Positions 1 through 26,547 of a DNA stretch of 26,547 bases are shown piece after piece. Both the position numbers and the translations under genes were made by a program. The stretch is from Anaerolineales bacterium (GTDB lineage Bacteria; Chloroflexota; Anaerolineae; Anaerolineales; E44-bin32), in contig WVZH01000216.1 in assembly GCA_011772595.1 (NCBI GenBank), forward strand, positions 63,735-90,281, in the 5' to 3' direction. Below the pieces are notes generated by a model. That model saw nothing but the letters and a program-made list of their open reading frames with translations. It did not search any database and was not told the origin of the DNA. Each line of letters begins with the position of its first letter. The stretch's first letter is position 1.

Positions 1-534
1 TAAGAGCGAATCCACCTCCAATATCGCCCGTAGAGGATAGCTCTTGTAGGCCACCCTGGCTCGTTCGGCTTGTGGATCATACCAATTCGAAGATCCTTTC
101 GGCATTGTATGCAAGAAGAAGCTCAAGGGACGTAGGATGGGCCTTAAGCGTTTCAAGCGAGGATCGGGAGGTAGGCGATAAGGGGTCGACAAGGCAGCAA
201 CGGCTCGGACCTCACGCCTGGCGGATTGTAGCAATGATAATGCTCCTCCAACGGAAAACCCAACTGCGATTACCTGCTCACAGATAGTACTCAAGATCTC
301 GTACCCGTCTTCTACGGAAGCCAACCAATCATGCCAGCGGGAGCGATTCATGTCTTTGACGTTCGTTCCATGGCTGGACAGTCGAACACCGAGCACGGTG
401 TGGCCTTGACGGGCTAGAAACGCGCCGAGTTCACGTACCTCCTGTGGTGAGGCCGTGAATCCATGCGTCAGCAGGCAACCGACTTTCCCGCCGGGGAAGA
501 AGAACGGCTCGGCCCCTCGAATGATCTGCCTCAC
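1..534 (-). CDS. Alpha/beta-hydrolase (carboxylesterase-like), second tandem paralog, partial
   Basis: This reading frame is open from base 534 to the window edge, about 178 codons, so the C-terminus is missing. It begins VRQIIRGAEPFFFPGG and continues GCLLTHGFTASP, which matches the start of the neighbouring hydrolase almost residue by residue. The nucleophile elbow is visible as GFSVGG (G-x-S-x-G). The Asp and His of the triad would lie beyond the window. The start is GTG and overlaps the TGA of the upstream gene as GTGA, with a weak GAGAG seven bases before it, so translation is probably coupled. By family this is a soluble serine hydrolase acting on carboxyl esters or a related acyl substrate. 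The true substrate cannot be read from the sequence. Confidence 0.85.
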   Translation of the reverse strand, partial: MRQIIRGAEPFFFPGGKVGCLLTHGFTASPQEVRELGAFLARQGHTVLGVRLSSHGTNVKDMNRSRWHDWLASVEDGYEILSTICEQVIAVGFSVGGALSLLQSARREVRAVAALSTPYRLPPDPRLKRLRPILRPLSFFLHTMPKGSSNWYDPQAERARVAYKSYPLRAILEVDSLL

Positions 535-1295
535 GACGTTGCTCTCTGGATGAAGTCAACGACGTTAGCGAAGACGGTCTGGCGTTCGGCGTCCCGAGGG
601 ACGACGTGACCACTATCTGTAACCCACACGAGTTGCTTGTGTTTGGAAGAAATCGCTTCATGTATGGCGTGCGCGTGTCCCCCGGAGACCGATAGGTCGC
701 CCTTCGAGTGGATCAATAACACGGGGATTTCCAGACCAGGGAGACTGCGCCGCATCAATCTGAGAAGGTTGTCTACTTCCGAGCCCCCTCGAACGGGATA
801 ACTTGCATAATCCAGGTGACTTTCTGCAGCCTCGCTGTCGTGCCAATCGGAACGTCCCCTTTTGGTTCGATATCGCCATACTAAGCTCAAGCTTGGAAGG
901 ATACGGCGAAATCGTTTCGCAAGTTGATATGGCATATCGTAGGGGGTCGACATCGCAACCACACCAGTTACAGGAAGGTATGAGCTTACATACAGCGAGA
1001 GCACTCCACCCATGGATAAACCCATAACGATGATTTGAGAGCAGACGTCGTTCAGAAGATGGTATCCATCCTCGGCCGAGGCGACCCAGTCTTTCCACCG
1101 GGCTCGGACGATATCTTTAACCTGGGTGGCGTGTGCGAACAAGCGCGGCGCATGCACGGAGTACCCATGATTTGCTAGTTGATCGCCTAGCCAACGCATT
1201 TCGAACGGGGTTCCCGTGAATCCGTGAAGTAGGAGGCAGCCGATATCTCCACCTGGAAGGTAGAATGGCTCAGCGCCCCTCATAATCTGTTTCAA
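531..1295 (-). CDS. Alpha/beta-hydrolase (carboxylesterase/monoglyceride-lipase-like), first tandem paralog
   Basis: A 254-residue serine hydrolase of the alpha/beta fold. The HGFTGTP oxyanion loop is near residues 24-30, the nucleophile is Ser94 in GLSMGG, the likely acid is Asp200 in HSKGD, and the likely His is 230 in DSGHVV. The length fits single-domain carboxylesterases. The frame can be extended to a GTG at 1334, but I chose the TTG at 1295. It has a strong GGAGG seven bases upstream, it overlaps the peptidase stop as TTGA, and it puts the N-terminus (LKQIMRGAEPF) in register with the paralog downstream (VRQIIRGAEPF). It is the middle gene of a three-gene minus-strand operon after an M24 peptidase. 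Substrate unknown; probably cytoplasmic, as no signal peptide is seen. Confidence 0.88.
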   Translation of the reverse strand: MKQIMRGAEPFYLPGGDIGCLLLHGFTGTPFEMRWLGDQLANHGYSVHAPRLFAHATQVKDIVRARWKDWVASAEDGYHLLNDVCSQIIVMGLSMGGVLSLYVSSYLPVTGVVAMSTPYDMPYQLAKRFRRILPSLSLVWRYRTKRGRSDWHDSEAAESHLDYASYPVRGGSEVDNLLRLMRRSLPGLEIPVLLIHSKGDLSVSGGHAHAIHEAISSKHKQLVWVTDSGHVVPRDAERQTVFANVVDFIQRATS

Positions 1296-2392
1296 GCGAT
1301 AACCTCCAAATCGCGAGAATAAGAAGTAAGGCACTCGCCGCTGTTGGGAGAGACGATCAAGTTGTCTTCTATGCGGATGCCGCCTTTATTCGGGAGGTAG
1401 ATTCCCGGTTCGATTGTGAAGGTCATTCCGGGCGCGAGGCGTAGATCGTTGTCTGCACGGATCCCCGGGGGCTCGTGCGCGTCGAGACCGATACCATGAC
1501 CAGTACGGTGGATGAAATATTCTCCATATCCCGCATTTTCGATCACCGCTCTGGAGGCGCGATCGATCTGGCCACAAGTTACATCGGGTCGCACGGCCTC
1601 CCTTCCTGCGGCGTTCGCTTCTTGAACGATCCGATATACTTTCTCGAGTTCGGCGTCGATCTCACCAATGGCAAACGTGCGAGTGATATCGGAGATGTAT
1701 CCCTGCGCTCTGGCACCCCAATCCAGGATCAGCAGATCGCCTACTAGTAAGCAACGCTCAGTCGGAGTCGCGTGGGGCAAGGCGCTGTTAGGACCGGAGG
1801 CCACAATTGGACTAAAGGGAAGTTCGGTCTCCGATCCGGCGCGCAATAATTGGACGACGAGTTCGGCTTCTAATTCGCGCTCGGTCATCCCTTGACGAAC
1901 GAGAGGTAGCGTGGCTTCCAGCGCTTTTTCTGCGATCGCGACGGCGCGGCGCATCGACTGGACTTCTGCCTCGTCTTTGAGTATGCGAAGATTGGTGAGC
2001 ACACTCGCCGCGGACACAAATTGTGCATCGGGTGCAACGTTTTCCAATAAACGGAGTTCGAAGACGCGCAGGCGAAGCGGTTCCACACCCACACGACGAC
2101 CGTTCAGCTTATCCGTGACAGATTGAAAGGCTTGGATGCGGGAGGTTTCATCCTCACCATATGTCCGAACTTCGATGTCCAATGTAGACCCCTCGGCTTT
2201 GGTGCGCTCCAACTCCGGCACGACGAGCACCGGTTTTTCATCACGAGAGAAGAGTCCAATGACGGGTCTTTCCATGAGGTGGAAGGACAGTCCGGTGAGG
2301 TAAAAGAAGCTAGTTCCGGGATTGAGAACTATGACCTCGAGTTTCTCAGCTTGTAATGCTGTAAGCAGCTTATCGATGCGTTCCTTAAGCAT
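1292..2392 (-). CDS. M24 family metallopeptidase (Xaa-Pro aminopeptidase/dipeptidase-like)
   Basis: A 366-residue pita-bread fold peptidase expected to cleave N-terminal residues next to proline, using two metal ions. The N-terminal creatinase-like domain covers roughly residues 1-130. The catalytic domain carries all five metal ligands of the family: Asp224 and Asp235 (in LDWGA...SDITRTF), His299 (in HRTGHGIG), Glu328 (in FTIEPGIY) and Glu342 (in GGIRIEDN). The frame is open upstream to 2488, but the ATG at 2392 is preferred. It begins MLKERIDKLLTAL like its family, has an AGGAGGGG Shine-Dalgarno just upstream, and lies about 16 bases after the start of transcription predicted from the promoter at 2415-2443. 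Its stop overlaps the next gene. Xaa-Pro dipeptidase (PepQ-like) and aminopeptidase (PepP-like) cannot be separated here. Confidence 0.93.
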   Translation of the reverse strand: MLKERIDKLLTALQAEKLEVIVLNPGTSFFYLTGLSFHLMERPVIGLFSRDEKPVLVVPELERTKAEGSTLDIEVRTYGEDETSRIQAFQSVTDKLNGRRVGVEPLRLRVFELRLLENVAPDAQFVSAASVLTNLRILKDEAEVQSMRRAVAIAEKALEATLPLVRQGMTERELEAELVVQLLRAGSETELPFSPIVASGPNSALPHATPTERCLLVGDLLILDWGARAQGYISDITRTFAIGEIDAELEKVYRIVQEANAAGREAVRPDVTCGQIDRASRAVIENAGYGEYFIHRTGHGIGLDAHEPPGIRADNDLRLAPGMTFTIEPGIYLPNKGGIRIEDNLIVSPNSGECLTSYSRDLEVIA

Positions 2393-2998: not shown

Positions 2999-5815
2999 AT
3001 GGGAAAGAAAAAAGGAAGCAAGAAAAAGATCGCCGAGCGCCCTCACATCGAGCGGTATGATCCTGGGGAGATCGAGCATCGTTGGCAGTCTCGTTGGGAG
3101 GCGGACGAGTTGTACAAGGCAGTGATCGATCCAAAGAAAGAAAAGTTCTACTTCCTGACCATGCTCCCCTATACCTCCGGGGATATGCATATCGGACACT
3201 GGTATGCCATGACGCCCTCGGATGCGCGCGCGCGCTACTTGCGAATGCGGGGTTTCAATGTGATGTATCCGATTGGCTTCGATGCTTTCGGTTTGCCCGC
3301 GGAGAACGCGGCAATTGATCATGGTATCCACCCCAAGGAATGGACTTACAAGAACATCGAAAACCAGCGGCGCCAACTGCGTAGTATGGGGGCCATGTGG
3401 GATTGGTCGCGCGAGGCGATCTCATCCGATCCGGAATATTACCGTTGGTCGGAATGGTTCTTCCTGCAGATGTACAAGAACGACCTGGCGTATAAAAAGA
3501 TGTCGCCCGTCGATTGGTGTCCGCAATGCAATACCACCTTGGCTCGTGAACAGGTATGGGGTGAAGACCGTCATTGTGAGCGCTGCAAGACGCCTGTGAT
3601 CAAGAAGAACCTGGATCAGTGGTTCTTTCGTATCACCCGATACGCCCAAGAGCTACTCGACTTCGCGATCCTAGACTGGCCCGATCCCGTCAAGACTCTA
3701 CAAGAGAATTGGATCGGACGCAGTGAAGGTGCGAATGTCACCTTCCCAACGGAAGATGGAGATCCAATTGAGGTTTTTACCACACGTCCCGATACGCTCT
3801 GGGGAGCAACGTTCATGGTTCTTGCACCCGAGCATCCGCTGGTCGAGAAGTTGACCTCCACGGAGCAGACCGAAGTTGTTCATGAATATGTCCATCAGGC
3901 TGCACGACAATCAGACATCGAACGTGAGGCCATCGACAAAGAAAAAACCGGTGTTTTCACAGGGGGCTATGCAATCAACCCGGTTAACGATGAGCGCATT
4001 CCGGTGTGGATCGCCGATTACGTCTTGATGACCTACGGCACTGGAGCGATCATGGCTGTGCCCGCACACGATGAACGTGACTTCGAATTCGCCTTGAAAT
4101 TCGGTCTGCCCATTCTGCCTGTCATTGAGCGACCTGATGGTTTGACGAAATCGATGGCCCTGGCAGGGACGATGAAAAAGGGTTTCGCCCAGGCTCTAGA
4201 TAAGGAAAAAATCCCTTTCGAGGAGCGCGAAGGTTCGCTTTTGATCAATATTCCACTTGATAAGGTCTCCCGCTATATCGAGATCGCACAGGAATATGTC
4301 AAACCGGATTCCTGGGTGGAGGTGGTGGGAACCAACTGGTCGTTCATTTTCCATGACGAAATTTGGGAGTGGAATTCGTATGCTTCCGATGTGCGCATCC
4401 TAGAGCGATGCCAGTCTTTGGAACCCAACGTGCGCGACAAACGTACCGTGATGGAGTTGCTGTGGGGGGTTGAGTTTTACCGTGACGCGCTTTATCACGA
4501 TGGCTATGGAACGATGATCAACTCGGGTCCTATGACAGGGACGCCGGGTGAAGAAGCCTTTGAGCAGACGAACGCTTTTCTTGAGCAGAAGGGGGTCGGG
4601 CAGTACGCCGTCAACTACCGTCTTCACGATTGGTTGATCTCGCGTCAGCGCTATTGGGGAGCGCCGATCCCGATCGTGTACTGTCAAGAGTGCGGCATTG
4701 TGCCCGTGCCGGAGGAACAATTGCCCGTGGTGCTGCCCGATGATGTGGAGTGGCGGCCCACGGGTGAGAGTCCACTGAAGTTTCATCCCACATGGAAGCA
4801 CACCCAATGCCCTGTGTGTGATGAACCAGCAGAACGCGAAACCGACACCATGGATACCTTCATGTGTTCGTCCTGGTATCACTTGCGCTACCTCAGCCCA
4901 ACGTATGACAAGAGCCCGTTCGATCCAAAAGAGTACGACTATTGGATGCCGGTCGACACGTACACTGGCGGTGTGGAACACGCGACGATGCACCTGATAT
5001 ACACCCGGTTCTTTCACAAGGCATTCAGGGACTTGGGCGTAACGGAGGGGCACGAACCTATGCTGCAATTGCGCAACCAAGGACAGATTCTCGGACCCGA
5101 TGGGCAACGCATGAGTAAGTCGCGTGGCAACGTGATCGACCCCGATGAACAGGTCGCCACGTATGGTGCCGATGCCGTGCGGGCGTATCTGATGTTCGGT
5201 TACCGTTGGTCGGAAGGTGGTCCTTGGAACCCGGATAACATCCAGGGTGTTGTACGCTGGCTGCATCGCGTTTGGTCCTTGGTGCTGGAAACCAAAGATG
5301 CGCAAGCCGTCGAGGAGGATGCCGAGCGCGCTCGGACCTTGCTGCGTAAAGTGCATCAGACGATACGCCAAGTTTCACATGATTTTGAAAATTTCGAGTT
5401 CAATACGGTCATCTCTGCATTGATGGAACTGACAAATACCATCGCCGATGCGCGCGATACGCAGCAGGCTGGAACACCTGCGTTCGAACAGGCCATCGAG
5501 ACCTTGTTGCTGTTGATGGCCCCACCTACACCGCATATCTCCGAAGAGCTGTGGATGAGACTCGGTAAACCCTATTCCATCCACAATCAACCGTGGCCTG
5601 AGTATGATCCCGAACTGGCGAAAGAGGATGAGATCACATTGGTTGTACAGGTTAATGGCAGAGTACGAGATCGAATCACGGTTCCCGCCGATATACGTGA
5701 AGAGGATGCTAAGGCGATTGCCTTGGGAAGTGAAACTGTGCAGCGTTTCACCGGTGGAGCGGAACCGCGCAAGGTAATCTTCGTTAAAGGACGCTTAGTG
5801 AACATCGTGATATGA
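2999..5815 (+). CDS. leuS: Leucyl-tRNA synthetase
   Basis: A class Ia aminoacyl-tRNA synthetase that charges tRNA-Leu in the cytoplasm. The HIGH signature is at residues 64-67 of this start (MHIGHWYAMT), within a typical LeuRS context (SDARARY...YPIGFDAFGLPAENAAI). A zinc-binding CPQC...CERC pair follows, then the CP1 editing domain with TTRPDTLWG and MAVPAHDERD, and the second signature as RMSKS near residues 704-708. The length, about 938, fits bacterial LeuRS. The frame also has an ATG at 2993, but GGAG (2988-2991) is seven bases before the ATG at 2999 and only one base before 2993, so 2999 is favoured. A lysine-rich N-terminal tail (KKKGSKKK) precedes the catalytic core. Expression is controlled by the T-box leader just upstream, whose Leu specifier agrees with the product. 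Confidence 0.98.
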   Translation: MGKKKGSKKKIAERPHIERYDPGEIEHRWQSRWEADELYKAVIDPKKEKFYFLTMLPYTSGDMHIGHWYAMTPSDARARYLRMRGFNVMYPIGFDAFGLPAENAAIDHGIHPKEWTYKNIENQRRQLRSMGAMWDWSREAISSDPEYYRWSEWFFLQMYKNDLAYKKMSPVDWCPQCNTTLAREQVWGEDRHCERCKTPVIKKNLDQWFFRITRYAQELLDFAILDWPDPVKTLQENWIGRSEGANVTFPTEDGDPIEVFTTRPDTLWGATFMVLAPEHPLVEKLTSTEQTEVVHEYVHQAARQSDIEREAIDKEKTGVFTGGYAINPVNDERIPVWIADYVLMTYGTGAIMAVPAHDERDFEFALKFGLPILPVIERPDGLTKSMALAGTMKKGFAQALDKEKIPFEEREGSLLINIPLDKVSRYIEIAQEYVKPDSWVEVVGTNWSFIFHDEIWEWNSYASDVRILERCQSLEPNVRDKRTVMELLWGVEFYRDALYHDGYGTMINSGPMTGTPGEEAFEQTNAFLEQKGVGQYAVNYRLHDWLISRQRYWGAPIPIVYCQECGIVPVPEEQLPVVLPDDVEWRPTGESPLKFHPTWKHTQCPVCDEPAERETDTMDTFMCSSWYHLRYLSPTYDKSPFDPKEYDYWMPVDTYTGGVEHATMHLIYTRFFHKAFRDLGVTEGHEPMLQLRNQGQILGPDGQRMSKSRGNVIDPDEQVATYGADAVRAYLMFGYRWSEGGPWNPDNIQGVVRWLHRVWSLVLETKDAQAVEEDAERARTLLRKVHQTIRQVSHDFENFEFNTVISALMELTNTIADARDTQQAGTPAFEQAIETLLLLMAPPTPHISEELWMRLGKPYSIHNQPWPEYDPELAKEDEITLVVQVNGRVRDRITVPADIREEDAKAIALGSETVQRFTGGAEPRKVIFVKGRLVNIVI

Positions 5816-5848
5816 GACTCGGTCTCGAGACAAGTAGTTAGAAACTCG

Positions 5849-5874
5849 TAGGGACGTTCAATCGAACGTCCCTA
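5849..5874. repeat. Perfect palindromic hairpin after leuS
   Basis: TAGGGACGTTC (5849-5859) and GAACGTCCCTA (5864-5874) form an 11-bp perfect stem with a 4-base loop. There is no T-run after it, so it is a poor rho-independent terminator, though it may still help end leuS transcription. It resembles the GGGGCG-type palindromes near 17300-17390. Confidence 0.75.
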
Positions 5875-6023
5875 TGTTGCTCTAGAAGAGGGTTGGCGCT
5901 ATAAACTGTAACCAAACTGTTATAAGTTGGTGAACCTGTTGTGAATTTGATACGCGAGATTAGGAGTTGATCTTCTATTTGAATCAACTAGATAAAGGAA
6001 ACTCGCGTTTGAGAGGTTTGGCA

Positions 6024-8684
6024 ATGCGATACCCGGATGATAAGACACCTATGATTTTGGCGAGCATCTTGCTTCAGCTGGCGCTTTTGCTCTCTGGTTG
6101 TCAACGTGGGGACGAGATATCTGAGCCCGGGGCAATGCGGACATTGACGGCTGTCGCCGATCTCCAGCAAGAGCCGAGCGCTATCCAGGCGAGATCCTCC
6201 CCGCAACTTCTCCCGGACTTGGTAGTGGAGTCGATTTCCGTAGAGTGGACAATTCTCGACGATTGCTTCAGCATTTCAGACACTGCGACTTTCCAGGTCA
6301 GTATTCGGGTTACCAACATAGGAGAAGCGGACGCCGGCACCTTTCATTTTTTGGTCAACCAGTTTCGGAGTGAGGATGTCTCTAGTGGGTTGAGGAAAGG
6401 AGAAACAGGAACGTATACGTATGATGGTAATTCCTTGGCATTGGATCTTGGTAAGACCGTATGGGTAGATGTAGACAATGAGAACGAGATTATTGAGAGT
6501 AACGAGGGTAACAACCTTCGTGCGCATATGATTTCGGCGCCTGAATCGGTTCCACCATGTCCCTCGATCGAACCAGATCCGTGTCCGGAGCCTACTTCGA
6601 TACCTCTATTCTCTGAAGACCAAGCGATCACCTTTTCAGAGCTCCACATGATCGACGGTTTGAACGGCTGGGCGGTATCAAGTGTCGAAGATGAAGACGA
6701 TCACATTCTTCGTACCGAAGATGGCGGCAGATCTTGGAAGGATGTCACACCACCGCAATTGAGCCTGATATGCGAACTGGCCCCCTTGCGCGCAGCGCGC
6801 TTTTTCCTTAATGAAGAAGTTGCTTGGGTTTTATATTATGAGCCCTCATCTGGTCGAGGCATATTTGGTTCCTGGCGTACTCTCGATGGCGGAGAGACTT
6901 GGGAACGAATGTCCTTTCTTCAAGTTAACACAGACATTTTAGGAGGTTTCTTTACATGGCCAATCCTCGAGTTCAGGGACTCTCAGCATGGTTGGTTGTT
7001 GATTGATTACTTCATGGGGGCGGGTTCTCATGCAGCCGAACTCTACAGAACCATCGATGGGGGCAGGTCTTGGGAATTGATCCCGGAGGTTTACTTGGAG
7101 GCGTACTTGACTCATGGAAGCGGATTGGATTTCATTGACGATAGGCACGGCTGGGCAACGTCAAACGATCCTGTCCTCGTCTATATGGGTCTCAACGTGA
7201 CGAACGATCGGGGACACACGTGGCATTTTCAAGAACTGCCCTATCCAAGCGAGTTGCTTGGTGTAAATGAATATGATCCCCATTCATGTTACGTCTCTAG
7301 ACCCAGACTACGAACTGCTCGAATTGGTTCCGTCGTTGTAGAATGTGAAGGCGACTATTTCCTATACACCTCAGAGGACGGTGGTCAATCCTGGAGGGGT
7401 GTGGCAATACCGGGTGGTCCTCCGCAACTTCTTGACCCGATGACGGGCTGGACACTCGATGGGCACGTTTCCGATGACCTCGATCCAGACGAGATCCGTT
7501 CGTGTGATCTCTATAAGACTGAGGATGGAGGCTATAGCTGGACGAAGGTTACGACAGTGGACTGGTGCGGTACATTGAATTTCGTCAGTGATGAGGTTGG
7601 GTGGGCATTGGGAGCGATTGCGGATGAGACTGCGTTTATGCACACCAAGGATGGAGGGCGAACGTGGGAGCGGATATCTCCCCTCATCGTCTCTTATGAA
7701 GTCTCTCAAGAAAGGGATGTCACTCCGTATCTCGTGCTGCCTGAGGAACTTCAGCCCATCGGATCAGGTAATCTTCATCAATTGCGGATTCTTGCAGAAG
7801 TTCCTGCCAAGGACGCGACCAGATTAGCCTTCCCCCCTGAAGGAGGTGCTCTATTCGTGACGCACAGTGACGGCACGATTTCAGAGTGGGAGCTCGAAGG
7901 GGTAGCTTCTCCATCCATTGCCAGGATTCACACAGATTGGATTTACGATCTCGATTTCTCTCTGGATGGGGATTGGTTAGCGACGGCCTCCAAGAGCGGT
8001 GAATTGGAGTTAGAGGGCATTGATGCCTATGTAATTCCGACTGAGGATATTCAGACGCTTACAATGAACTACGGCGAGGTGACCAGCGTGGCTTTCTCGC
8101 CATCTGCTGACATCCTGGCTGCTGGCTATGAGGACAAGACAATCGTACTATGGCAGTATTCCGAGTATGGGTATGATTCAGAGATACGAAGTAAGTTAGA
8201 TGGCCACACAGGGTGGGTCTGGGACGTTATGTATTCGGTCGATGGGCGTACCCTTGCCTCGGGCTCGAGTGACCGCACTGTGAGGCTTTGGGACGTTGAG
8301 CGTGGAGAGACTCTGCACACGCTACGGGGGCACACATCCACCGTATGGAGAGTGGCATTCTCACCTGACGGACAGGTACTGGCTTCTGCTTCGTGGGACG
8401 GGACGGTGTCGCTGTGGGATCCGCTGTCCGGTGAGGAATTGCGTACGTTGCGAGGGCATACGGATTGGATAACGGATATCGCATTCGCGCCATCTGGTGA
8501 GATCCTGGCTACAGCGTCGAAGGATGGCACGGTACTATTGTGGGCACCGGATCGCGAAGGGCCGCCACATACTCTCTGGAAACACCATTCTCCTGTGAAT
8601 GCTCTGGCATTCTCGCCGGGTGGGCAACTCTTGGCAACAGTGTCGGATGATGGTTCCTTGCGCTTCTGGGGTGTCGAGCCTTAG
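6024..8684 (+). CDS. Lipoprotein with CARDB-like, Asp-box (BNR/YCF48-like) and WD40 propeller domains
   Basis: An exported protein of 886 residues. The N-terminal signal peptide ends in a lipobox, LLLSGC, with the lipidated Cys at 26, so it is probably anchored on the outer face of the cytoplasmic membrane. Residues of about 43-146 look like a CARDB/adhesion domain (DLVVESI...FQVSIRVTNIGEADAG). Seven Asp-box repeats follow (for example EDGGRSWKD, LDGGETWER, IDGGRSWEL, EDGGQSWRG, KDGGRTWER), suggesting a sialidase-like or YCF48-like propeller. The C-terminal third has seven WD40 blades ending in units such as DRTVRLWDV and DGTVSLWDP, enough for a closed propeller. The start at 6024 is chosen because GAGAGG (6011-6016) is seven bases upstream; the frame itself is open from 5967. 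No catalytic residues are recognised; a binding or scaffold role is inferred. Confidence 0.88.
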   Translation: MRYPDDKTPMILASILLQLALLLSGCQRGDEISEPGAMRTLTAVADLQQEPSAIQARSSPQLLPDLVVESISVEWTILDDCFSISDTATFQVSIRVTNIGEADAGTFHFLVNQFRSEDVSSGLRKGETGTYTYDGNSLALDLGKTVWVDVDNENEIIESNEGNNLRAHMISAPESVPPCPSIEPDPCPEPTSIPLFSEDQAITFSELHMIDGLNGWAVSSVEDEDDHILRTEDGGRSWKDVTPPQLSLICELAPLRAARFFLNEEVAWVLYYEPSSGRGIFGSWRTLDGGETWERMSFLQVNTDILGGFFTWPILEFRDSQHGWLLIDYFMGAGSHAAELYRTIDGGRSWELIPEVYLEAYLTHGSGLDFIDDRHGWATSNDPVLVYMGLNVTNDRGHTWHFQELPYPSELLGVNEYDPHSCYVSRPRLRTARIGSVVVECEGDYFLYTSEDGGQSWRGVAIPGGPPQLLDPMTGWTLDGHVSDDLDPDEIRSCDLYKTEDGGYSWTKVTTVDWCGTLNFVSDEVGWALGAIADETAFMHTKDGGRTWERISPLIVSYEVSQERDVTPYLVLPEELQPIGSGNLHQLRILAEVPAKDATRLAFPPEGGALFVTHSDGTISEWELEGVASPSIARIHTDWIYDLDFSLDGDWLATASKSGELELEGIDAYVIPTEDIQTLTMNYGEVTSVAFSPSADILAAGYEDKTIVLWQYSEYGYDSEIRSKLDGHTGWVWDVMYSVDGRTLASGSSDRTVRLWDVERGETLHTLRGHTSTVWRVAFSPDGQVLASASWDGTVSLWDPLSGEELRTLRGHTDWITDIAFAPSGEILATASKDGTVLLWAPDREGPPHTLWKHHSPVNALAFSPGGQLLATVSDDGSLRFWGVEP

Positions 8685-20381: not shown

Positions 20382-21506
20382 ATGAACGTGAACAAATGGG
20401 CATTCGGAGCGTTGTTGTTCTTTCTGTTCTTTGCTGCGACAGCTTGTGAGGAATCCGAAAGTCCCGGCCCTACAAGCAATCCCGATGTCCTTCCCACAGC
20501 TTCTCGCCAGGGTGGAACGACGCAGAGAAAGCATCGATACCTGGGCGTTGACATCAGCGTACCTGAGGATGGCGACTACGATCGAGCCTTCACGATGGTT
20601 TACGAGCTGGGTGCGCGTGAGATCAGCCTGTCTGTCGCCTGGGACGACATTGAATCCGCTCCGGGCGTCTACGACCCCGATCCAAATTGGTTGGCAATCG
20701 CAAATATTTATTACGGTGCTGTGGAGGATGTCGTCATCTCGCTGATGATCGGTCTGATCGATACCAACATAAATTGTGTGCCTTCCGATCTGGCAAATAA
20801 ACCTTTTGACGATCCGGAGGTGATCCAGCGCTATCAAAAACTCCTGGATTACGTCTTTGACCAAATCCCGGACTTGGAATTGCTTTCCCTTTCAATCGGG
20901 AACGAGATTGACGCTTATTTGGGGACCGACCCGGAGCTGTGGAGGCAGTATCAAGCCTTTTACGAGGCTGTGTCGGCTTATGCACGGGCACAACGTCCTG
21001 GTCTGCTGGTGGGCGCTAAGGCGCAACTCGATGGTTTGTTGGGTCCTCCAAAATCGTATTTGAGATCGCTCAACGAGTTAAGCGACGTGATTTTGGTGAC
21101 ATACTATCCACTTGGGGGTGATTTCGCGGTAAAGAATCCACGTGTTGTGTGGGAGGACTTCCAGGCACTCGTTTCGGCATATGAAGGCCGGACGATTCAT
21201 ATGTTGGAAGTCGGATACCCAACGAGCGCAGCGCTCAACAGTTCAGAATCGAAGCAGGCGGATTTTATGCGTGAGGTGTTCAGGACCTGGGATGCCTATG
21301 CTGATCAAATCCACGTTGTCTCGTTCACCTGGTTGACAGACGTACCTCAATCCTCCGTGGAGGAGATGGAGGCGTATTATGGTTTCTCGGCGTTCAATTT
21401 TGCCGAGTTTTTACGCACCCTCGGACTGCGGACGTACGAGGGATCAGGTGAGGATAAGCAGGCATTTGGGGTACTCGTTGAGGAAGCGAAAGCACGTGAG
21501 TGGTGA
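20382..21506 (+). CDS. Glycoside-hydrolase-like (clan GH-A type) lipoprotein
   Basis: A 374-residue exported protein. A signal peptide with a lipobox, AATAC, puts the lipidated Cys at 22, followed by a Ser/Pro/Thr-rich linker. The rest looks like a TIM barrel of the GH-A clan: YLGVDISVP at strand 1, VAWDDIESAPGVYD near strand 2, the putative acid/base Asn174-Glu175 in SIGNEIDAYLG after strand 4, VTYYPLGG at strand 6, and the putative nucleophile Glu276 in HMLEVGYPTS at strand 7. Both Glu are kept at the places expected for retaining glycosidases, so it may be active on a cell-surface or environmental glycan. The family (GH5-, GH53- or arabinogalactanase-like) cannot be fixed by eye. Upstream is a candidate promoter; the Shine-Dalgarno is weak. 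Confidence 0.78.
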   Translation: MNVNKWAFGALLFFLFFAATACEESESPGPTSNPDVLPTASRQGGTTQRKHRYLGVDISVPEDGDYDRAFTMVYELGAREISLSVAWDDIESAPGVYDPDPNWLAIANIYYGAVEDVVISLMIGLIDTNINCVPSDLANKPFDDPEVIQRYQKLLDYVFDQIPDLELLSLSIGNEIDAYLGTDPELWRQYQAFYEAVSAYARAQRPGLLVGAKAQLDGLLGPPKSYLRSLNELSDVILVTYYPLGGDFAVKNPRVVWEDFQALVSAYEGRTIHMLEVGYPTSAALNSSESKQADFMREVFRTWDAYADQIHVVSFTWLTDVPQSSVEEMEAYYGFSAFNFAEFLRTLGLRTYEGSGEDKQAFGVLVEEAKAREW

Positions 21507-22142: not shown

Positions 22143-22177
22143 AAGACTTCCGAAGTCTTTCATACTTCGGAAGTCTT
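22143..22177. repeat. Nested double palindrome
   Basis: AAGACTTCCGAAGT (22143-22156) is a perfect inverted repeat of ACTTCGGAAGTCTT (22164-22177), a 14-bp stem with a 7-base loop. Each arm is also nearly palindromic by itself (AAGACTTC/GAAGTCTT on the left, ACTTC/GAAGT on the right), so it can form one long or two short hairpins. It may end arfB transcription, but no T-run follows. Confidence 0.7.
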
Positions 22178-22347
22178 GTGCCATTGGCGCTGGAAAGACC
22201 TACTCAACAGTCTAATACAGTTGGGTGAAAGTAGATTCGACAAGTGTTTGCTCACTTTCTTCATACTGAGGGTTCGCGGTTGGGCTAGACACGGAGCCAG
22301 CGATGGCGTATATTTTCATTAATGCACAAGCAAGGAGGAGGATTACG
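22178..22347 (+). promoter_or_regulatory. Unassigned foldable leader upstream of the ECF S component
   Basis: This 170-base stretch has several possible helices: ACTCAAC (22202-22208) with GTTGGGT (22220-22226), GAAAGT (22227-22232) with ACTTTC (22254-22259), and a GGCT/AGCC hairpin around 22283-22299. Substrate-binding genes of ECF importers are often under riboswitch control. However, I do not recognise the thiamine, cobalamin, FMN, folate, purine or preQ1 core here. The stretch ends in AAGGAGGAGG, the ribosome-binding site of the S gene. Confidence 0.3.
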
Positions 22348-22923
22348 ATGGACAGAATTCGACGTGAATTCACAACACTGACGCTGGTCCTGATCCCGGT
22401 TGCCATCGCCATCAACATAGCAATAGGTCAAATTCCTTTCGCACTTAAGGTGCCACTCTACCTAGATTCGATCGGCACGGTGCTCGTCGGAGTCCTCGTG
22501 GGACCCTGGGCTGGGGCGCTGACAGGATTCCTGGCCAACTTTATTTGGACGATCACCGGCCTCTTCCCGGAGGCGGTCGCCTGGGCAGGGGTTGCGGCCA
22601 TCATCGGCGCCTTGGCGGGTGTGTTCCGTACTGGCGATTGGATGAAGGTTTGGTGGAAATCCATCGTCGCCGGCTTGATCACAGGGGTGATCGCCGCCAT
22701 TTTGTCCGCGCCCATCGCCGCCTATGTGTTTGGTGGTGTGACGGGCGCAGGCACTGATGCGCTGGTCGGCATGTTCCGGGCTGCAGGTCTCGACATGCTC
22801 GGCGCAAACATGGCCCAAGGCGTCGTCTCGGACCCAATCGATAAGGCAGTGACTTTCTTCATCATCTGGGCCATCCTGCTCGCGTTACCGGAGCGCTTTA
22901 AGGCTCGTTTCTCGGGTGAGTGA
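22348..22923 (+). CDS. ECF transporter S component (substrate-binding membrane protein)
   Basis: A 191-residue, very hydrophobic protein with about six predicted membrane helices. Features seen in S components are the short cytoplasmic N-terminus, the early LKVPLYLDSIGTVLVGVLVGPWAGALTGFLANFIW stretch (interrupted by small residues that pack on EcfT) and a moderately polar loop before the last helix. It would bind the imported compound and topple in the membrane when coupled to the EcfT-A1-A2 module encoded 290 bases downstream. The ATG at 22348 is preferred over 22303 because AAGGAGGAGG ends six bases before it. The substrate is not readable; the downstream PfkB kinase hints at a hydroxyl-bearing compound such as a nucleoside, sugar or vitamin. 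Confidence 0.82.
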   Translation: MDRIRREFTTLTLVLIPVAIAINIAIGQIPFALKVPLYLDSIGTVLVGVLVGPWAGALTGFLANFIWTITGLFPEAVAWAGVAAIIGALAGVFRTGDWMKVWWKSIVAGLITGVIAAILSAPIAAYVFGGVTGAGTDALVGMFRAAGLDMLGANMAQGVVSDPIDKAVTFFIIWAILLALPERFKARFSGE

Positions 22924-23025
22924 GGTGCCATTGGGAACGTAGAGCATCCCGAAGTACCAGAATTAAGAAAGACTGTTTTAAATTCCATGCACGTGGTTGG
23001 TGATGAATAGAAAATCACCGTAGTG

Positions 23026-23125
23026 CCATTGCGGGGAGCTCTTCGTCAAGCTCGGGGTGAACTTCCCGGCGAAGCGATCTCCAATCCACAACAAGGAGAT
23101 TGCTTCGCCTTCGGCTCGCAATCGA
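23026..23125. repeat. Palindromic intergenic repeat (MITE/REP-like) between S component and ecfT
   Basis: GGCGAAGCGATCTCC (23068-23082) pairs with GGAGATTGCTTCGCC (23095-23109), 15 bp with one G-T wobble and a 12-base loop. Outer arms ATTGCG (23028-23033) and CGCAAT (23117-23122) close it. The left arm holds about 22 extra bases. The ATTGCG...GAAGC-ATCTCC pattern is that of a palindromic repeat I know from many bacterial genomes. Confidence 0.7.
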
Positions 23126-23159
23126 TGTAGCAAAGGTCACATTCCGTTGTCCGTGTATC

Positions 23160-23180
23160 GCTGTTGAAACAGCTTTTTTT
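23160..23180 (+). terminator. Short rho-independent-like terminator before ecfT
   Basis: GCTGT (23160-23164), loop TGAA and ACAGC (23169-23173) form a 5-bp hairpin followed at once by seven T (23174-23180), 33 bases before the ecfT start. The stem is short, so termination may be partial. Confidence 0.5.
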
Positions 23181-23212
23181 AATCTGCAGGCTTATCATAT
23201 ACTCACAAGCAC

Positions 23213-23995
23213 ATGAGCACACCGACATTGTATCTTCACCGACCAAGTGGGTTACACGCCTTACACCCTCTCACCAAATTAGCCCTTACCGGCTTTTTCC
23301 TCGTCTCTGCTGCTACCCTCCCAAACATCTGGCTGGTGTTAGGTTTTTATGTTATTGGGCTTCTCCCATTAGCCGCCTGGGGGCTAGTGTTCAAACCCTT
23401 TTTGAAAAGTAACGCGCTCTTGATCTGGCCGTTCGCTCTCTCTCTGTTCTTGATCCAGGGTTTCTTCACGCCTGGAGAGAGCGTCTTGTTCACAGTAGGC
23501 CCTTTCACGTACACGCTGGAGGGCGTATGGCTGGCAGCGAGGTTTAGCGCACGTATTTTGGTATGGTTGGGCGCGGCGACGCTCTTGATGATCGTCACGC
23601 GCCCAGACAATCTCATGCTGGCGTTGATCGAACGCGGTTTGCCCAGGGAGATCGCCTACATCATTTTGACCTCCCTACAGATCATCCCGCGTTTCCAAAG
23701 CAAAGCCGAGGTGATTCTAGATGCGCAACGTTCGCGTGGGCTGGAGACGGAAGGATCACTACTTCATCGTATGCGGATCTTAGTTCCCCTCATCGCTCCC
23801 TTGATCCTCAGCAGCATCCTGGAGTTGGATGAGCGCGCCATCGCCTTGGAGGCGCGTGCCTTTAGCCGCCCGGGTCCCCGAACTAACCTTACAAGACTGG
23901 AGGATACGTCGATTCAAGCGGCAGCTCGTTGGGGATTGCTGGTATTGATCATCATCTTGATAGGGATTCCGCTTGTGAGTTTTTTCTTGACATGA
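23213..23995 (+). CDS. ecfT: ECF transporter T component
   Basis: A 260-residue membrane protein that links the S component to the two ATPases. Several hydrophobic helices lie in the N-terminal half (LTKLALTGFFLVSAATL; ALLIWPFALSLFLIQGFF; ILVWLGAATLLMIVT) and one at the C-terminus (GLLVLIIILIGIPLVSFFL). The long cytoplasmic coupling helices carry the two Arg motifs of the family that insert in the ATPases: QRSRG (Arg173 and Arg175) and EARAF (Ala214-Arg215-Ala216). The opening LHRPSGLHALHPLTKL is typical of EcfT. No strong Shine-Dalgarno is seen before the ATG. The stop overlaps ecfA1 as ATGA, so translation is coupled. Confidence 0.93.
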   Translation: MSTPTLYLHRPSGLHALHPLTKLALTGFFLVSAATLPNIWLVLGFYVIGLLPLAAWGLVFKPFLKSNALLIWPFALSLFLIQGFFTPGESVLFTVGPFTYTLEGVWLAARFSARILVWLGAATLLMIVTRPDNLMLALIERGLPREIAYIILTSLQIIPRFQSKAEVILDAQRSRGLETEGSLLHRMRILVPLIAPLILSSILELDERAIALEARAFSRPGPRTNLTRLEDTSIQAAARWGLLVLIIILIGIPLVSFFLT

Positions 23996-24828
23996 TACGC
24001 GTCGAATCGTTGTCCTACAGCTACCCCAACTCGGATCAAATCGTGTTGCGGGAGATCGATCTTCGTATCCCGAAAGGTCAGTTTTGTGGCGTCGTGGGGC
24101 CAAACGAGGCCGGGAAGTCGACACTTTGCTACGCGCTTACAGGATTCATCCCGCATTACTACAAGGGGAACCTGACGGGTCAGGTTTCAATTGCAGGGAA
24201 AGACGTCGCGAATACCCCATTGTATGAGCTCGCAGGGGTGATTGGTCTAGTCTTCCAGAATCCTTTCAATCAAATCACGGGCTCGCGTTTTACCGTGCGG
24301 GAAGAGGTTGCGTTTGGGCTCGAAAACCTGGGGATGGAGCGCGAGGAGATGTTTAAACGTGTCGCGTGGGCGTTGGATTTGATGGGTTTGAAGGATCTTG
24401 CAGACCGCTCTCCCTTTGCGCTCTCCGGCGGTCAGCAGCAACGATTGGCGATTGCGGCGATGGTCGCCATGCGCCCGAGGATCTTGGTGCTCGACGAGCC
24501 CACCAGCCAATTAGATCCCGTTGGAACACGCGAATTGTTTGCGTCGTTACACGCGATGAGTGAGGAGGGGGAGATCACCGTGGTGCTTGTCGAGCATAAG
24601 TTGGAGTGGCTGGCAGGATTTGCCGATCGGGTGATCCTACTTGCTGAAGGAAGCATTGTTGCTGACGGGCCGCCACGAACAGTGCTCGCCTCCCCATTGA
24701 TGGAGCGCTACGGGGTGAGGCAAACTCGCTACACTCGAGCGGCAAGCCTGGCCCAAGAACGCGGTGCGATCGGTCGTGACCGGATGCTGCCCGTCACGCT
24801 CGAAGAAGCGGTTGATACCTTCCGATGA
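23992..24828 (+). CDS. ecfA1: ECF transporter ATP-binding protein A1
   Basis: A 278-residue ABC ATPase, one half of the heterodimer that powers the importer at the inner face of the membrane. Walker A is GPNEAGKS (36-43), with Glu where many have Gly. The Q-loop is FQNPFNQ (about 88-94), the signature LSGGQ is at 144-148 and followed by QQRLAIA, and Walker B VLDEP has the catalytic Glu169. The switch His is in VEHKLEW. The start ATG overlaps the ecfT stop (ATGA), and the stop overlaps ecfA2 in the same way. A C-terminal extension of about 60 residues follows the ATPase core, as in other EcfA proteins. All catalytic motifs are canonical apart from the Walker A Glu. Confidence 0.95.
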   Translation: MIRVESLSYSYPNSDQIVLREIDLRIPKGQFCGVVGPNEAGKSTLCYALTGFIPHYYKGNLTGQVSIAGKDVANTPLYELAGVIGLVFQNPFNQITGSRFTVREEVAFGLENLGMEREEMFKRVAWALDLMGLKDLADRSPFALSGGQQQRLAIAAMVAMRPRILVLDEPTSQLDPVGTRELFASLHAMSEEGEITVVLVEHKLEWLAGFADRVILLAEGSIVADGPPRTVLASPLMERYGVRQTRYTRAASLAQERGAIGRDRMLPVTLEEAVDTFR

Positions 24829-25634
24829 ACGCGATTATCGAGGGCGTTTCCTTCAATTACCCCTCCGGCGTAATTGCGCTTAAAGAAGTCAGCTTGAAGA
24901 TCATGGGCGGGGAGGCGGTGGCGATTATCGGCGAGAACGGCGCCGGAAAAACCACACTTGCCAAGCATTTGAATGGTCTGCTTGAGCCAACCGAGGGTCG
25001 CGTCTTGATTGGCGATTGGGACACCCAAGAACACACGGTCGGGCAGCTCTCGAAGCGTGTGGGATTTGTCTTTCAGAATCCGGATGACCAGCTCTTCGCG
25101 CGGAGTGTGCGAGCAGAGGTCGCTTTCGGTCCGAGCAATCTTGGTTTAAATGCCGAGGAGGTCGAAGTGCGTACGGATCAGGCGCTTGCCCAGGTTGGTC
25201 TTAAAGAATTGGCAGAGCACCATCCATATGATCTTCACGCGGCGACACGAAAGCTCGTTGCCATCGCTGCGACGTTAGCCATGGGGACACCTATCGTGAT
25301 CTTCGACGAACCCACTACAGGTCAGGATTCTCGAGCGGTAGGACACATCGGTCGTCTCGTGGAGGAGTTGAAGTCCGAAGGCCGAACCGTGATCACGATC
25401 TCGCACGATTTAGATTTTTGTGCGGAACACTCCGAACGTTTCATCGTTCTATCGCAAGGGCAAGTTCTAGCTGACGGTCCTGCAGAAAGAGTGTTGTCAC
25501 ATGAGGAGGTCTTGCACGAAGCCGGAGTGGAAGCACCGCAGATGGTGCGTCTTGCGAAGGCGCTCGATCTTCCATCGAGTCCACGAACTGTAGAGAACTT
25601 CGTCGAGGCATGGTGCGTGCAACGCAGGGCTTAA
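24825..25634 (+). CDS. ecfA2: ECF transporter ATP-binding protein A2 with degenerate signature
   Basis: A 269-residue ABC ATPase pairing with EcfA1. Walker A GENGAGKT (36-43), the Q-loop FQNPDDQ (about 83-89), Walker B IFDEP and the switch His in ISHDLDF are intact. Where the family has LSGGQ, this protein reads LHAAT (137-141), followed by RKLVAIA. In the heterodimer the site formed by A1 Walker A and the A2 signature should therefore be weak or inactive, while the opposite site looks complete. The start overlaps the ecfA1 stop by 4 bases, and the kinase gene follows after 11 bases, so the four genes ecfT-A1-A2-kinase form one operon. Confidence 0.94.
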   Translation: MNAIIEGVSFNYPSGVIALKEVSLKIMGGEAVAIIGENGAGKTTLAKHLNGLLEPTEGRVLIGDWDTQEHTVGQLSKRVGFVFQNPDDQLFARSVRAEVAFGPSNLGLNAEEVEVRTDQALAQVGLKELAEHHPYDLHAATRKLVAIAATLAMGTPIVIFDEPTTGQDSRAVGHIGRLVEELKSEGRTVITISHDLDFCAEHSERFIVLSQGQVLADGPAERVLSHEEVLHEAGVEAPQMVRLAKALDLPSSPRTVENFVEAWCVQRRA

Positions 25635-25645
25635 GAGAGGGAAAC

Positions 25646-26547
25646 ATGATCATAGTTCTAGGGGACCTCATCGCTGATCTAAGTCTTCACATCCCTCATT
25701 TCCCCGTTCAAGCAGGCGACATCCAGCGTGCCACATATCTGGAAATTGGCCCAGGAGGGGCCACCAATGTGGCCATCACCGCAGCGCGATTGGGTTTGCG
25801 GGTTGGTTGCTTGGGGGAGATTGGGAGCGACCGTTTTGGTCGGGTTGTGCTCGAAGGTCTGGAGCGTGAAGGAATTGACATTTCAGGTGTGCGCATCACC
25901 CCTGGTGCTGAGACACCCGTTGCCGGTGTTGTCGTCGACGGACAAGGTGAGCCCGCGTATCTGGGATATGGTGGTAGTTTGCAATTGAAACGCTTTCCCG
26001 ATGGATGGCGAGTGCCTATCGAGGGTGCGGATGCTGTGTTCACTGGTGGTTGGGCCGAGTATGATTGGACTCCCAAAATCATCTTGGAGGGAATGCGCGT
26101 TGCTAAGAAAGCCAACGTGCCCGTGTTTTTCGATCCCGGTCCTGGGAATCCTGCTGTTGATTCTGGTTGGTGGGGTAAGGCGCTGGAACTCACAGATGTG
26201 TTCCTGGCCACGGAAGCTGAGGCCAGGAAGCTGTCAGGCAAGGATGATCCCCTGGCATCCGCGCGTCAAATTCTTGGGAAAGGCCCAGGCATGGTGGTGA
26301 TCAAACGTGGCGCAGCGGGATGCTTCTTCCTGACGGAAGAGGGGGAACACATTGCGCCAGGATTCCCAGTCCAGGTGCGCGATGCCACCGGTGCCGGTGA
26401 CAGTCTGAACGCGGCAGTGATGTATGCCTATTTGAACAAGATGGACCTCGAAGCGACCGGTAGATTGGCGAACGCCACAGGGGCGGCGAAGGTGGAGAAG
26501 CTTGGGACAGGACATAACCTGCCGACCGCTGAGGATATCCGTGCCAT
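25646..26547 (+). CDS. PfkB-family carbohydrate/nucleoside kinase, partial
   Basis: The gene runs off the window after 300 codons; few residues are likely missing, as the family is about 300-320 long. PfkB signature 1 is seen as GPGGATNVAITAARLG (Asn41) and signature 2 as DATGAGDS (246-253), where Asp252 is the catalytic base. Family members phosphorylate a hydroxyl of a sugar, nucleoside or related compound with ATP. GAGAGGG stands about four bases before the ATG, and the gene begins 11 bases after ecfA2. The context suggests it traps the compound imported by the ECF transporter. Ribokinase, adenosine/inosine or pseudouridine kinase, or sugar kinase activity cannot be told apart by eye. Confidence 0.9.
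   Translation, partial: MIIVLGDLIADLSLHIPHFPVQAGDIQRATYLEIGPGGATNVAITAARLGLRVGCLGEIGSDRFGRVVLEGLEREGIDISGVRITPGAETPVAGVVVDGQGEPAYLGYGGSLQLKRFPDGWRVPIEGADAVFTGGWAEYDWTPKIILEGMRVAKKANVPVFFDPGPGNPAVDSGWWGKALELTDVFLATEAEARKLSGKDDPLASARQILGKGPGMVVIKRGAAGCFFLTEEGEHIAPGFPVQVRDATGAGDSLNAAVMYAYLNKMDLEATGRLANATGAAKVEKLGTGHNLPTAEDIRA

What the first reader, a model, noticed from the sequence alone, without database searches (positions are those of the whole stretch)
22178..26547. ECF importer plus PfkB kinase: candidate uptake-and-phosphorylate module for an unknown compound
One S component, EcfT, two ATPases and a PfkB kinase lie in a row, with 4-base overlaps T/A1/A2 and 11 bases to the kinase. A dedicated S gene next to its own energising module (group I arrangement) with a sugar/nucleoside-type kinase suggests import followed by metabolic trapping. 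I do not recognise the S component as ThiT, RibU, BioY, FolT, PdxU, CbiM or QueT. This is the strongest candidate here for an undescribed system. The gene order is seen; the shared substrate is inference.
Basis: partly seen in the sequence, partly recalled or inferred. Interest (0 to 1): 0.75.

Follow-up and report, generated by a model that had tools for sequence, protein, structure and literature searches.

The report
ECF importer with a linked kinase
A bacterium related to Anaerolineales carries a complete energy-coupling-factor importer next to an unusual sugar/nucleoside-type kinase; relatives of the importer's binding protein often sit beside nucleoside-cutting or queuosine-recycling genes, so it most likely brings in a nucleoside that the kinase then locks inside the cell, although the exact compound is still unknown.

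Summary
The genes are as described: S component (start 22348), EcfT, EcfA1, EcfA2 and a PfkB kinase (25646 to the window edge), with 4-base overlaps and an 11-base gap; 289 structured bases separate S from EcfT. The linkage is conserved: 13 of 16 informative loci of the window's S branch have S-T-A1-A2-kinase, and among 298 genomes of the class the kinase ortholog occurs in 15, behind EcfA2 in 11. S passes only the generic PF12822 cut-off. Other members of the S family lie beside nucleoside hydrolases (37 of 80 loci) or queuosine-salvage genes (11 of 80). The kinase fails the ribokinase cut-off; genomes with the ECF-linked kinase mostly lack nucleoside hydrolases (3 of 17 have one), while a kinase of the hydrolase-linked branch is a ribokinase by NCBIfam. 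Where the kinase is not by the transporter it adjoins cytidylate kinase or CTP synthase (4 of 4 genomes, two branches). I read the unit as a ribonucleoside importer with its own nucleoside kinase (about 50%). Which nucleoside (pyrimidine, pseudouridine, queuosine-like) is unresolved, and by fold the kinase is nearer to sugar kinases. No substrate test was possible. New variant of a known kind.

The parts
22143..22177 (.). 14-bp hairpin upstream of the S gene, terminator-like on the minus strand
22348..22923 (+). ECF S component, 191 aa; best NCBIfam model CD3073, below its cut-off
22924..23212 (+). S-T intergenic stretch, strongly structured as RNA (MFE -100.3, z -4.9, 0 of 200 shuffles as low), with a terminator-like hairpin at 23160-23173 plus T run; no Rfam family
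   Evidence: only one 29-base match in the loci held. Terminator-like patterns are no commoner here than in shuffles
23213..23995 (+). EcfT, 260 aa, with two Arg motifs (SRG, ARA)
23992..24828 (+). EcfA1 with LSGGQ signature and DEP Walker B; Walker A reads GPNEAGKST
24825..25634 (+). EcfA2 with intact Walker A and B but no LSGGQ signature (PYDLHAATRK instead)
25646..26547 (+). PfkB-family kinase K, cut by the window end (314 aa in full, P0121); candidate nucleoside kinase

Best explanation
A dedicated ECF transporter takes up a ribonucleoside (ordinary or modified) through its S component, powered by EcfT and an asymmetric EcfA1/EcfA2 pair. The adjacent PfkB kinase K then phosphorylates the nucleoside at its 5'-hydroxyl, which traps it and feeds nucleotide pools. 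Shown: gene order, its conservation, fold and family of each part, family-level neighbours. Inferred: that the genes are co-transcribed, that S binds a nucleoside, that K acts on the same compound, and on its 5'-OH.
For: Linkage: 13 of 16 informative loci of the window's S branch have K behind EcfA2 (4 more end or hit an assembly gap first); K is behind EcfA2 in 11 of 15 K-bearing genomes among 298. S family: 37 of 80 loci have a nucleoside hydrolase homolog next to S (tblastn; two scanned are PF01156), 12 of these also a ribokinase-like gene; TGT or PF10343 homologs in 5 and QPTR homologs in 6, 11 different loci together. No locus of the 80 has both K and a hydrolase. ECF-linked-K genomes rarely have any PF01156 match: 3 of 17; in the class sample 2 of 11 against 168 of 287, Fisher p 0.011, not corrected for kinship. 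K fails ribokinase TIGR02152 (134.2 bits, cut-off 299.65) while the one hydrolase-linked kinase scanned passes it (357); K lacks the GGKGAN Lys and the LQLE Glu of the linked kinases and has an own DGWAE / FFDPGPGNP signature. Unlinked K adjoins a cytidylate-kinase protein (L115) or CTP synthase with a roadblock protein between (L116-L118), on two branches of the K tree. Related kinases (36-41% identical) lie near nucleoside hydrolases, PsuG, ADP-ribosylglycohydrolases or ABC importers.
Confidence: 0.5

Rival explanations
1. Queuosine-type salvage: S imports queuosine, queuine or another 7-deazaguanine compound, and K acts on the imported nucleoside or is a by-stander.
For: S relatives adjoin PF10343 + TGT (L025, L027, L029), TGT (L037), PF10343 (L034) and QPTR (L002, L042, L044, L051, L053, L059) (Pfam run on L025 for the first two and on L002 for QPTR). 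A Roseiflexus-type branch, one of whose six rows (L037) has TGT next to S, groups with much of the window's branch (99/94). The window's clade shares D137, Q157 and D162 with the TGT-linked clade, where the hydrolase/ribokinase clade II has S, T and E. K genomes have no QueC match above 30 bits (0 of 21) yet have TGT and QueA (12 of 12 tested, QueA partial in G002 and in two pieces in G031), so they are predicted to need preQ0/preQ1.
Against: 19 of 21 K genomes already have a QPTR, whereas the five genomes with TGT- or PF10343-linked S (G010, G011, G013, G016, G017) have none. PF10343 is absent from 7 of 7 ECF-K genomes tested (G015, with an unlinked K, has it). 4 of 5 actinobacterial genomes tested with hydrolase-linked S have no TGT. 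D137/Q157/D162 are also shared with other small clades and may be ancestral. A kinase has no place in base salvage.
Confidence: 0.2
2. Pseudouridine uptake: K is an alternative pseudouridine kinase feeding PsuG.
For: 15 of 17 ECF-K genomes have PsuG (G329 a fragment, G085 split over two contigs). Of 11 ECF-K genomes whose PsuG stretch I opened, 10 show no PfkB gene beside it (two stretches, L143 and L147, end within about 200 bases on the side where a kinase would lie), and G281 shows none either, while four genomes of the window's branch without a seen K (G001, G006, G023, G025; the loci of G001 and G025 are cut) have a PfkB-PsuG pair. Two K-related kinases lie next to PsuG (L125, L132).
Against: PsuG is common anyway (231 of 298; K genomes 12 of 15, p 1.0). 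Canonical PsuK-like genes occur in 7 of 15 K genomes, the class rate (135 of 298; at most 7 candidates scored per genome). PsuG without a PfkB neighbour also occurs in all four clade-II genomes opened. Three unlinked-K genomes lack PsuG.
Confidence: 0.12
3. The kinase is a free-sugar kinase (ribose-like or other) and S imports that sugar or an unrelated vitamin-like compound; the nucleoside links of more distant relatives do not carry over.
For: Closest solved structures are ribokinase and sulfofructose kinase. Weak ThiW match of S (21.8 bits, cut-off 84.35) and weak FolT match of the S profile in the PDB (22.6 bits). Three Bacteroidota/Ignavibacteria members of the S family lie behind pyruvate dehydrogenase genes.
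Against: Loss of the Lys and Glu conserved in the linked ribokinase-like genes; pyrimidine-nucleotide neighbours of unlinked K.
Confidence: 0.18

Closest known systems
QueK-QrtT-QueL queuosine salvage of Clostridioides difficile (seen in passages of PMC11477304 and PMC11130926)
   Same: PF12822-type ECF S component next to a hydrolase gene; S-family relatives here adjoin nucleoside hydrolase, TGT, PF10343 or QPTR
   Different: The window shows no hydrolase or lyase but a PfkB kinase and its own T/A1/A2; no reference QrtT or QueK sequence was available for comparison
NCBIfam NF045596, CD3073 family putative ECF S component
   Same: Best curated match of S (111.9 bits) and of the four other family members scanned (117-122 bits)
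   Different: Below the cut-off of 180; the model's name gives no substrate
Ribokinase RbsK (TIGR02152)
   Different: 134 bits against cut-off 299.65; two conserved motif residues of the linked ribokinase-like genes lost; own signature
Group I ECF vitamin importers
   Same: S, T and two ATPases together; S-component fold
   Different: EcfA2 lacks LSGGQ in all members read; kinase as fifth gene

Membership tests
ECF-type transporter, group I | Six-helix S component | tested here: met
ECF-type transporter, group I | EcfT with paired Arg motifs and two ATPases beside the S gene | tested here: met
ECF-type transporter, group I | LSGGQ signature in both ATPases | tested here: not met
   xSGGQ present in EcfA1 (window and 7 relatives; VSGGQ in L007), absent from EcfA2 in the window and 30 of 30 relatives read
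NCBIfam CD3073 S family | Score above the curated cut-off | tested here: not met
   111.9 against 180
ThiW | Score above the curated cut-off | tested here: not met
   18.6 against 30.3 in Pfam, 21.8 against 84.35 in NCBIfam
ThiT, RibU, BioY, FolT, PdxU, QueT and other curated S families | Match to the curated family model | tested here: not met
   No such model among matches up to E 0.1 for the window S; that each has a model in these libraries is recalled
QrtT queuosine transporter | Close similarity to a tested QrtT | not testable with these tools
   No reference sequence; the PNAS 2019 paper is not held
QrtT queuosine transporter | Linkage to queuosine genes | tested here: inconclusive
   Seen in 11 of 80 relatives, not in the window; the nearest case is L002 with a convergent QPTR
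Ribokinase | TIGR02152 cut-off | tested here: not met
   134.2 against 299.65
Nucleoside kinase (PfkB type) | Phosphorylates nucleosides | not testable with these tools
   Only neighbourhood evidence
Pseudouridine kinase PsuK | NCBIfam NF007355 cut-off | tested here: not met
   29.4 against 540; no PsuG seen at the locus

The most novel reading that the evidence does not exclude
The unit imports queuosine (or another 7-deazaguanosine) by an ECF transporter and K is a queuosine 5'-kinase, a phosphorylation that the Figure 1 legend of PMC11130926 lists only among possible pathways drawn with dashed arrows. The window's S shares its conserved polar positions D137/Q157/D162 with the TGT- and PF10343-linked branch.
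Probability: 0.12. Interest if true: 0.75.

Novelty: new variant of a known kind. Interest (0 to 1): 0.45.

Why it matters
ECF importers are known chiefly for vitamins, metals and queuosine precursors. A family whose branches are linked to hydrolase plus ribokinase-like genes, to a distinct kinase, or to tRNA-queuine insertion would show one transporter family serving nucleoside-type salvage by several chemical routes. It gives small, expressible gene sets that make substrate assignment directly testable, and a kinase subfamily whose substrate is not known.

Tried and rejected
Riboswitch as a substrate clue: at gathering scores the window holds only two tRNAs; one chance-level match at E up to 5 around the module; only tRNAs in ten relatives.

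K as a replacement for PsuK: attractive from the first PsuG neighbourhoods, weakened when the class rates were measured.

Q precursor need as the reason for the module: TGT and QueA present, QueC absent, but QPTR present in 19 of 21 K genomes.

L001, the nearest named relative (90% S identity), looked like a decayed module; its sequence runs into a stretch of N after the start of EcfA1, so it was not counted.

Papers: searches. None of the listings showed an ECF transporter paired with a PfkB kinase, or an ECF nucleoside importer outside the queuosine case; the library lacks most subscription papers. I saw passages only of PMC11130926, PMC11477304, PMC5372724, PMC6593275 and PMC11109136; everything else as listings.

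Rows dropped before counts: L024 (fragment) was left out of the S tree (80 rows: 79 of 80 loci plus the window); L040 and L048 also out (78 rows). Gene calls used simple ORF rules and missed genes; locus counts rest on the tblastn table, so most hydrolase, TGT, PF10343 and QPTR labels are by similarity to a Pfam-scanned relative. EcfA2 motifs were read in 30 relatives and EcfA1 motifs in 7, a subset of those held. In the kinase tree row L124_9110 was a wrong ORF pick (branch 5.3) and L125_12213 is another very long branch (5.1); the fork that joins K with its relatives is unresolved inside, so K alone is not shown to be one clade.

Full report
The window carries, on the plus strand, an ECF S component, EcfT, two ATPases and a PfkB-family kinase. 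The 4-base overlaps T/A1 and A1/A2 and the 11-base gap before the kinase are exact. The S gene most likely starts at 22348 rather than 22303, because the identical database protein has 191 residues. S and T are 289 bases apart. That stretch folds far better than its shuffles (z -4.9, 0 of 200) and holds a terminator-like hairpin near its end (where such patterns are no commoner than in shuffles). It has no Rfam match and only one 29-base match in the loci held. The kinase is cut by the window end; the complete protein has 314 residues (P0121).

The linkage to the kinase is real. A scan of GTDB genomes with the S alignment found 454 relatives, of which the best 80 were kept as loci. In the window's own branch of the S tree (20 named loci besides the window, the Roseiflexus-type group left aside), 13 have K directly behind EcfA2, 3 have the transporter without it (L002, L012, L014), and 4 cannot tell because the contig ends or an assembly gap intervenes (L001, L005, L006, L013). 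Searching K orthologs in 298 genomes of the class gave 15 with at least 456 bits, the next matches being at 285 bits or less; 11 of the 15 have EcfA2 directly upstream.

The wider S family points to nucleoside-type compounds. Of the 80 loci, 37 have a nucleoside hydrolase homolog beside S, in several cases two in tandem, and 12 of these also a ribokinase-like gene; two hydrolases scanned are PF01156, and the one such kinase scanned is a ribokinase by NCBIfam (357 bits, cut-off 299.65). The three hydrolases scanned against NCBIfam score best with the pyrimidine-specific RihA model, below its cut-off. Three Ardenticatenaceae/Ardenticatenia loci (L025, L027, L029) have PF10343 (queuosine salvage) and TGT before S; L037 has TGT; L034 has PF10343 behind its ATPases. 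QPTR homologs (PF02592) lie at L002, L042, L044, L051, L053 and L059. In L042, L051 and L059 the order is QPTR, ribokinase-like, hydrolase, hydrolase, S. Loci of a Roseiflexus-type branch adjoin photolyase genes and three loci (Bacteroidota, Ignavibacteria) pyruvate dehydrogenase genes, which I cannot place.

The tree separates these arrangements. Much of the window's K-linked branch groups with the Roseiflexus-type branch (99/94), the remaining K-linked rows joining at low support (83/48). The hydrolase/ribokinase rows of Chloroflexota form a clade of their own (99/97). The TGT/PF10343 rows, the actinobacterial hydrolase rows and the pyruvate-dehydrogenase rows lie together with weaker support (96/78). 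Positions D137, Q157 and D162 are shared by the window's clade and the TGT-linked clade and changed to S, T and E in the hydrolase/ribokinase clade; other small clades also share most of them, so they may be ancestral. That they line the pocket is inference from their place in the last two long helices.

Genome content suggests two alternative ways to use the imported compound. None of the 80 loci has both K and a hydrolase. Of 17 genomes with ECF-linked K, 3 have any PF01156 match (G024 with a partial 104-bit match, G031, G150). In the class sample this is 2 of 11 against 168 of 287 (Fisher p 0.011), but several of the 11 are close relatives, and when the 4 genomes with unlinked K are added the difference vanishes (6 of 15, p 0.19). 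The reading is that one branch cleaves the nucleoside and phosphorylates ribose, while the window's branch phosphorylates without cleaving.

Where K is not with the transporter, its neighbours are a cytidylate-kinase protein (L115) or a roadblock protein followed by CTP synthase (L116, L117, L118). These lie on two separate branches of the K tree, which supports a pyrimidine nucleotide link. Against a plain uridine/cytidine kinase, 15 of 17 ECF-K genomes have a Udk-like PF00485 match above 120 bits. Related kinases, 36 to 41% identical to K and joined with it against ribokinase and PsuK at 98/97, lie near PsuG (L125, L132), nucleoside hydrolases, ADP-ribosylglycohydrolases or ABC importers, and one (L129) overlaps a QPTR gene.

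Pseudouridine was tested as a substrate. PsuG is present in 15 of 17 ECF-K genomes. In 10 of the 11 whose PsuG stretch I opened no PfkB gene lies beside it (two of these stretches are too short to tell on the relevant side), whereas four genomes of the window's branch without a seen K have a PfkB-PsuG pair. Yet PsuG is in 231 of 298 genomes of the class and canonical PsuK-like genes in 135; K genomes show the same rates (12 of 15 and 7 of 15; p 1.0 for both), and four clade-II genomes also have PsuG alone. This neither supports nor excludes it.

Queuosine was tested too. All 12 ECF-K genomes examined have TGT and QueA (QueA partial in one and in two pieces in another); none of 21 K genomes has a QueC match above 30 bits, so they are predicted to need preQ0 or preQ1. 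But 19 of 21 have QPTR, and 0 of 7 examined ECF-K genomes have PF10343, though one genome with unlinked K (G015) does. In contrast the five genomes with TGT- or PF10343-linked S have no QPTR. Hydrolase-linked S also occurs in actinobacteria without TGT (4 of 5 tested), so the family as a whole is not only a queuosine system.

Conclusion. The best-supported reading is a ribonucleoside importer with its own nucleoside kinase, at about even odds. The base is unresolved. The arrangement is a new variant of a known kind: an ECF importer with a distinct kinase, in a family that seems to serve several salvage routes. My paper searches did not show a description of it, within an open-access library only.

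Noticed in passing
24825-25634 and EcfA2 of 30 relatives: EcfA2 has Walker A and B but no LSGGQ signature (typically PYDLxxxxRK) in the window and all 30 relatives read, while EcfA1 keeps it in the window and the 7 relatives read; one ATP site of this ECF family should be degenerate.
   Followed up: partly
L025, L027, L029 (around 5000-8600): PF10343 queuosine-salvage gene, TGT and S-T-A in one run in Ardenticatenaceae/Ardenticatenia whose genomes show no QueA or QPTR match: a candidate queuine/queuosine uptake and insertion unit.
   Followed up: partly
L042, L051, L059: Run of QPTR, ribokinase-like gene, two nucleoside hydrolases, then S (and ECF genes where the contig allows): two different transporters in one salvage cluster.
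   Followed up: partly
L060, L063, L080: Members of the same S family directly behind genes with pyruvate dehydrogenase E1 beta and E2 type domains (Pfam run on L060) in Bacteroidota/Ignavibacteria; purpose unknown.
   Followed up: no
L116, L117, L118: K ortholog, roadblock/LC7 protein and CTP synthase in a row; the roadblock protein between them is unexplained.
   Followed up: no
L125, L126, L127, L130, L131, L132, L129: PfkB kinases related to K with PsuG, nucleoside hydrolases, ADP-ribosylglycohydrolases, ABC importers or (L129) QPTR in nearby genes, in mixed combinations.
   Followed up: partly
window 22924-23212: 289-base structured intergenic stretch between S and EcfT; may set S and module expression apart. 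Gaps in 17 relatives are 36-183 bases and show no sequence match to it.
   Followed up: partly
window 20382-21506: 374-aa protein with a lipoprotein-like start and no Pfam match.
   Followed up: no
window 1-534 and 531-1334 (minus): Two tandem, related hydrolase-like genes overlapping by 4 bases.
   Followed up: no
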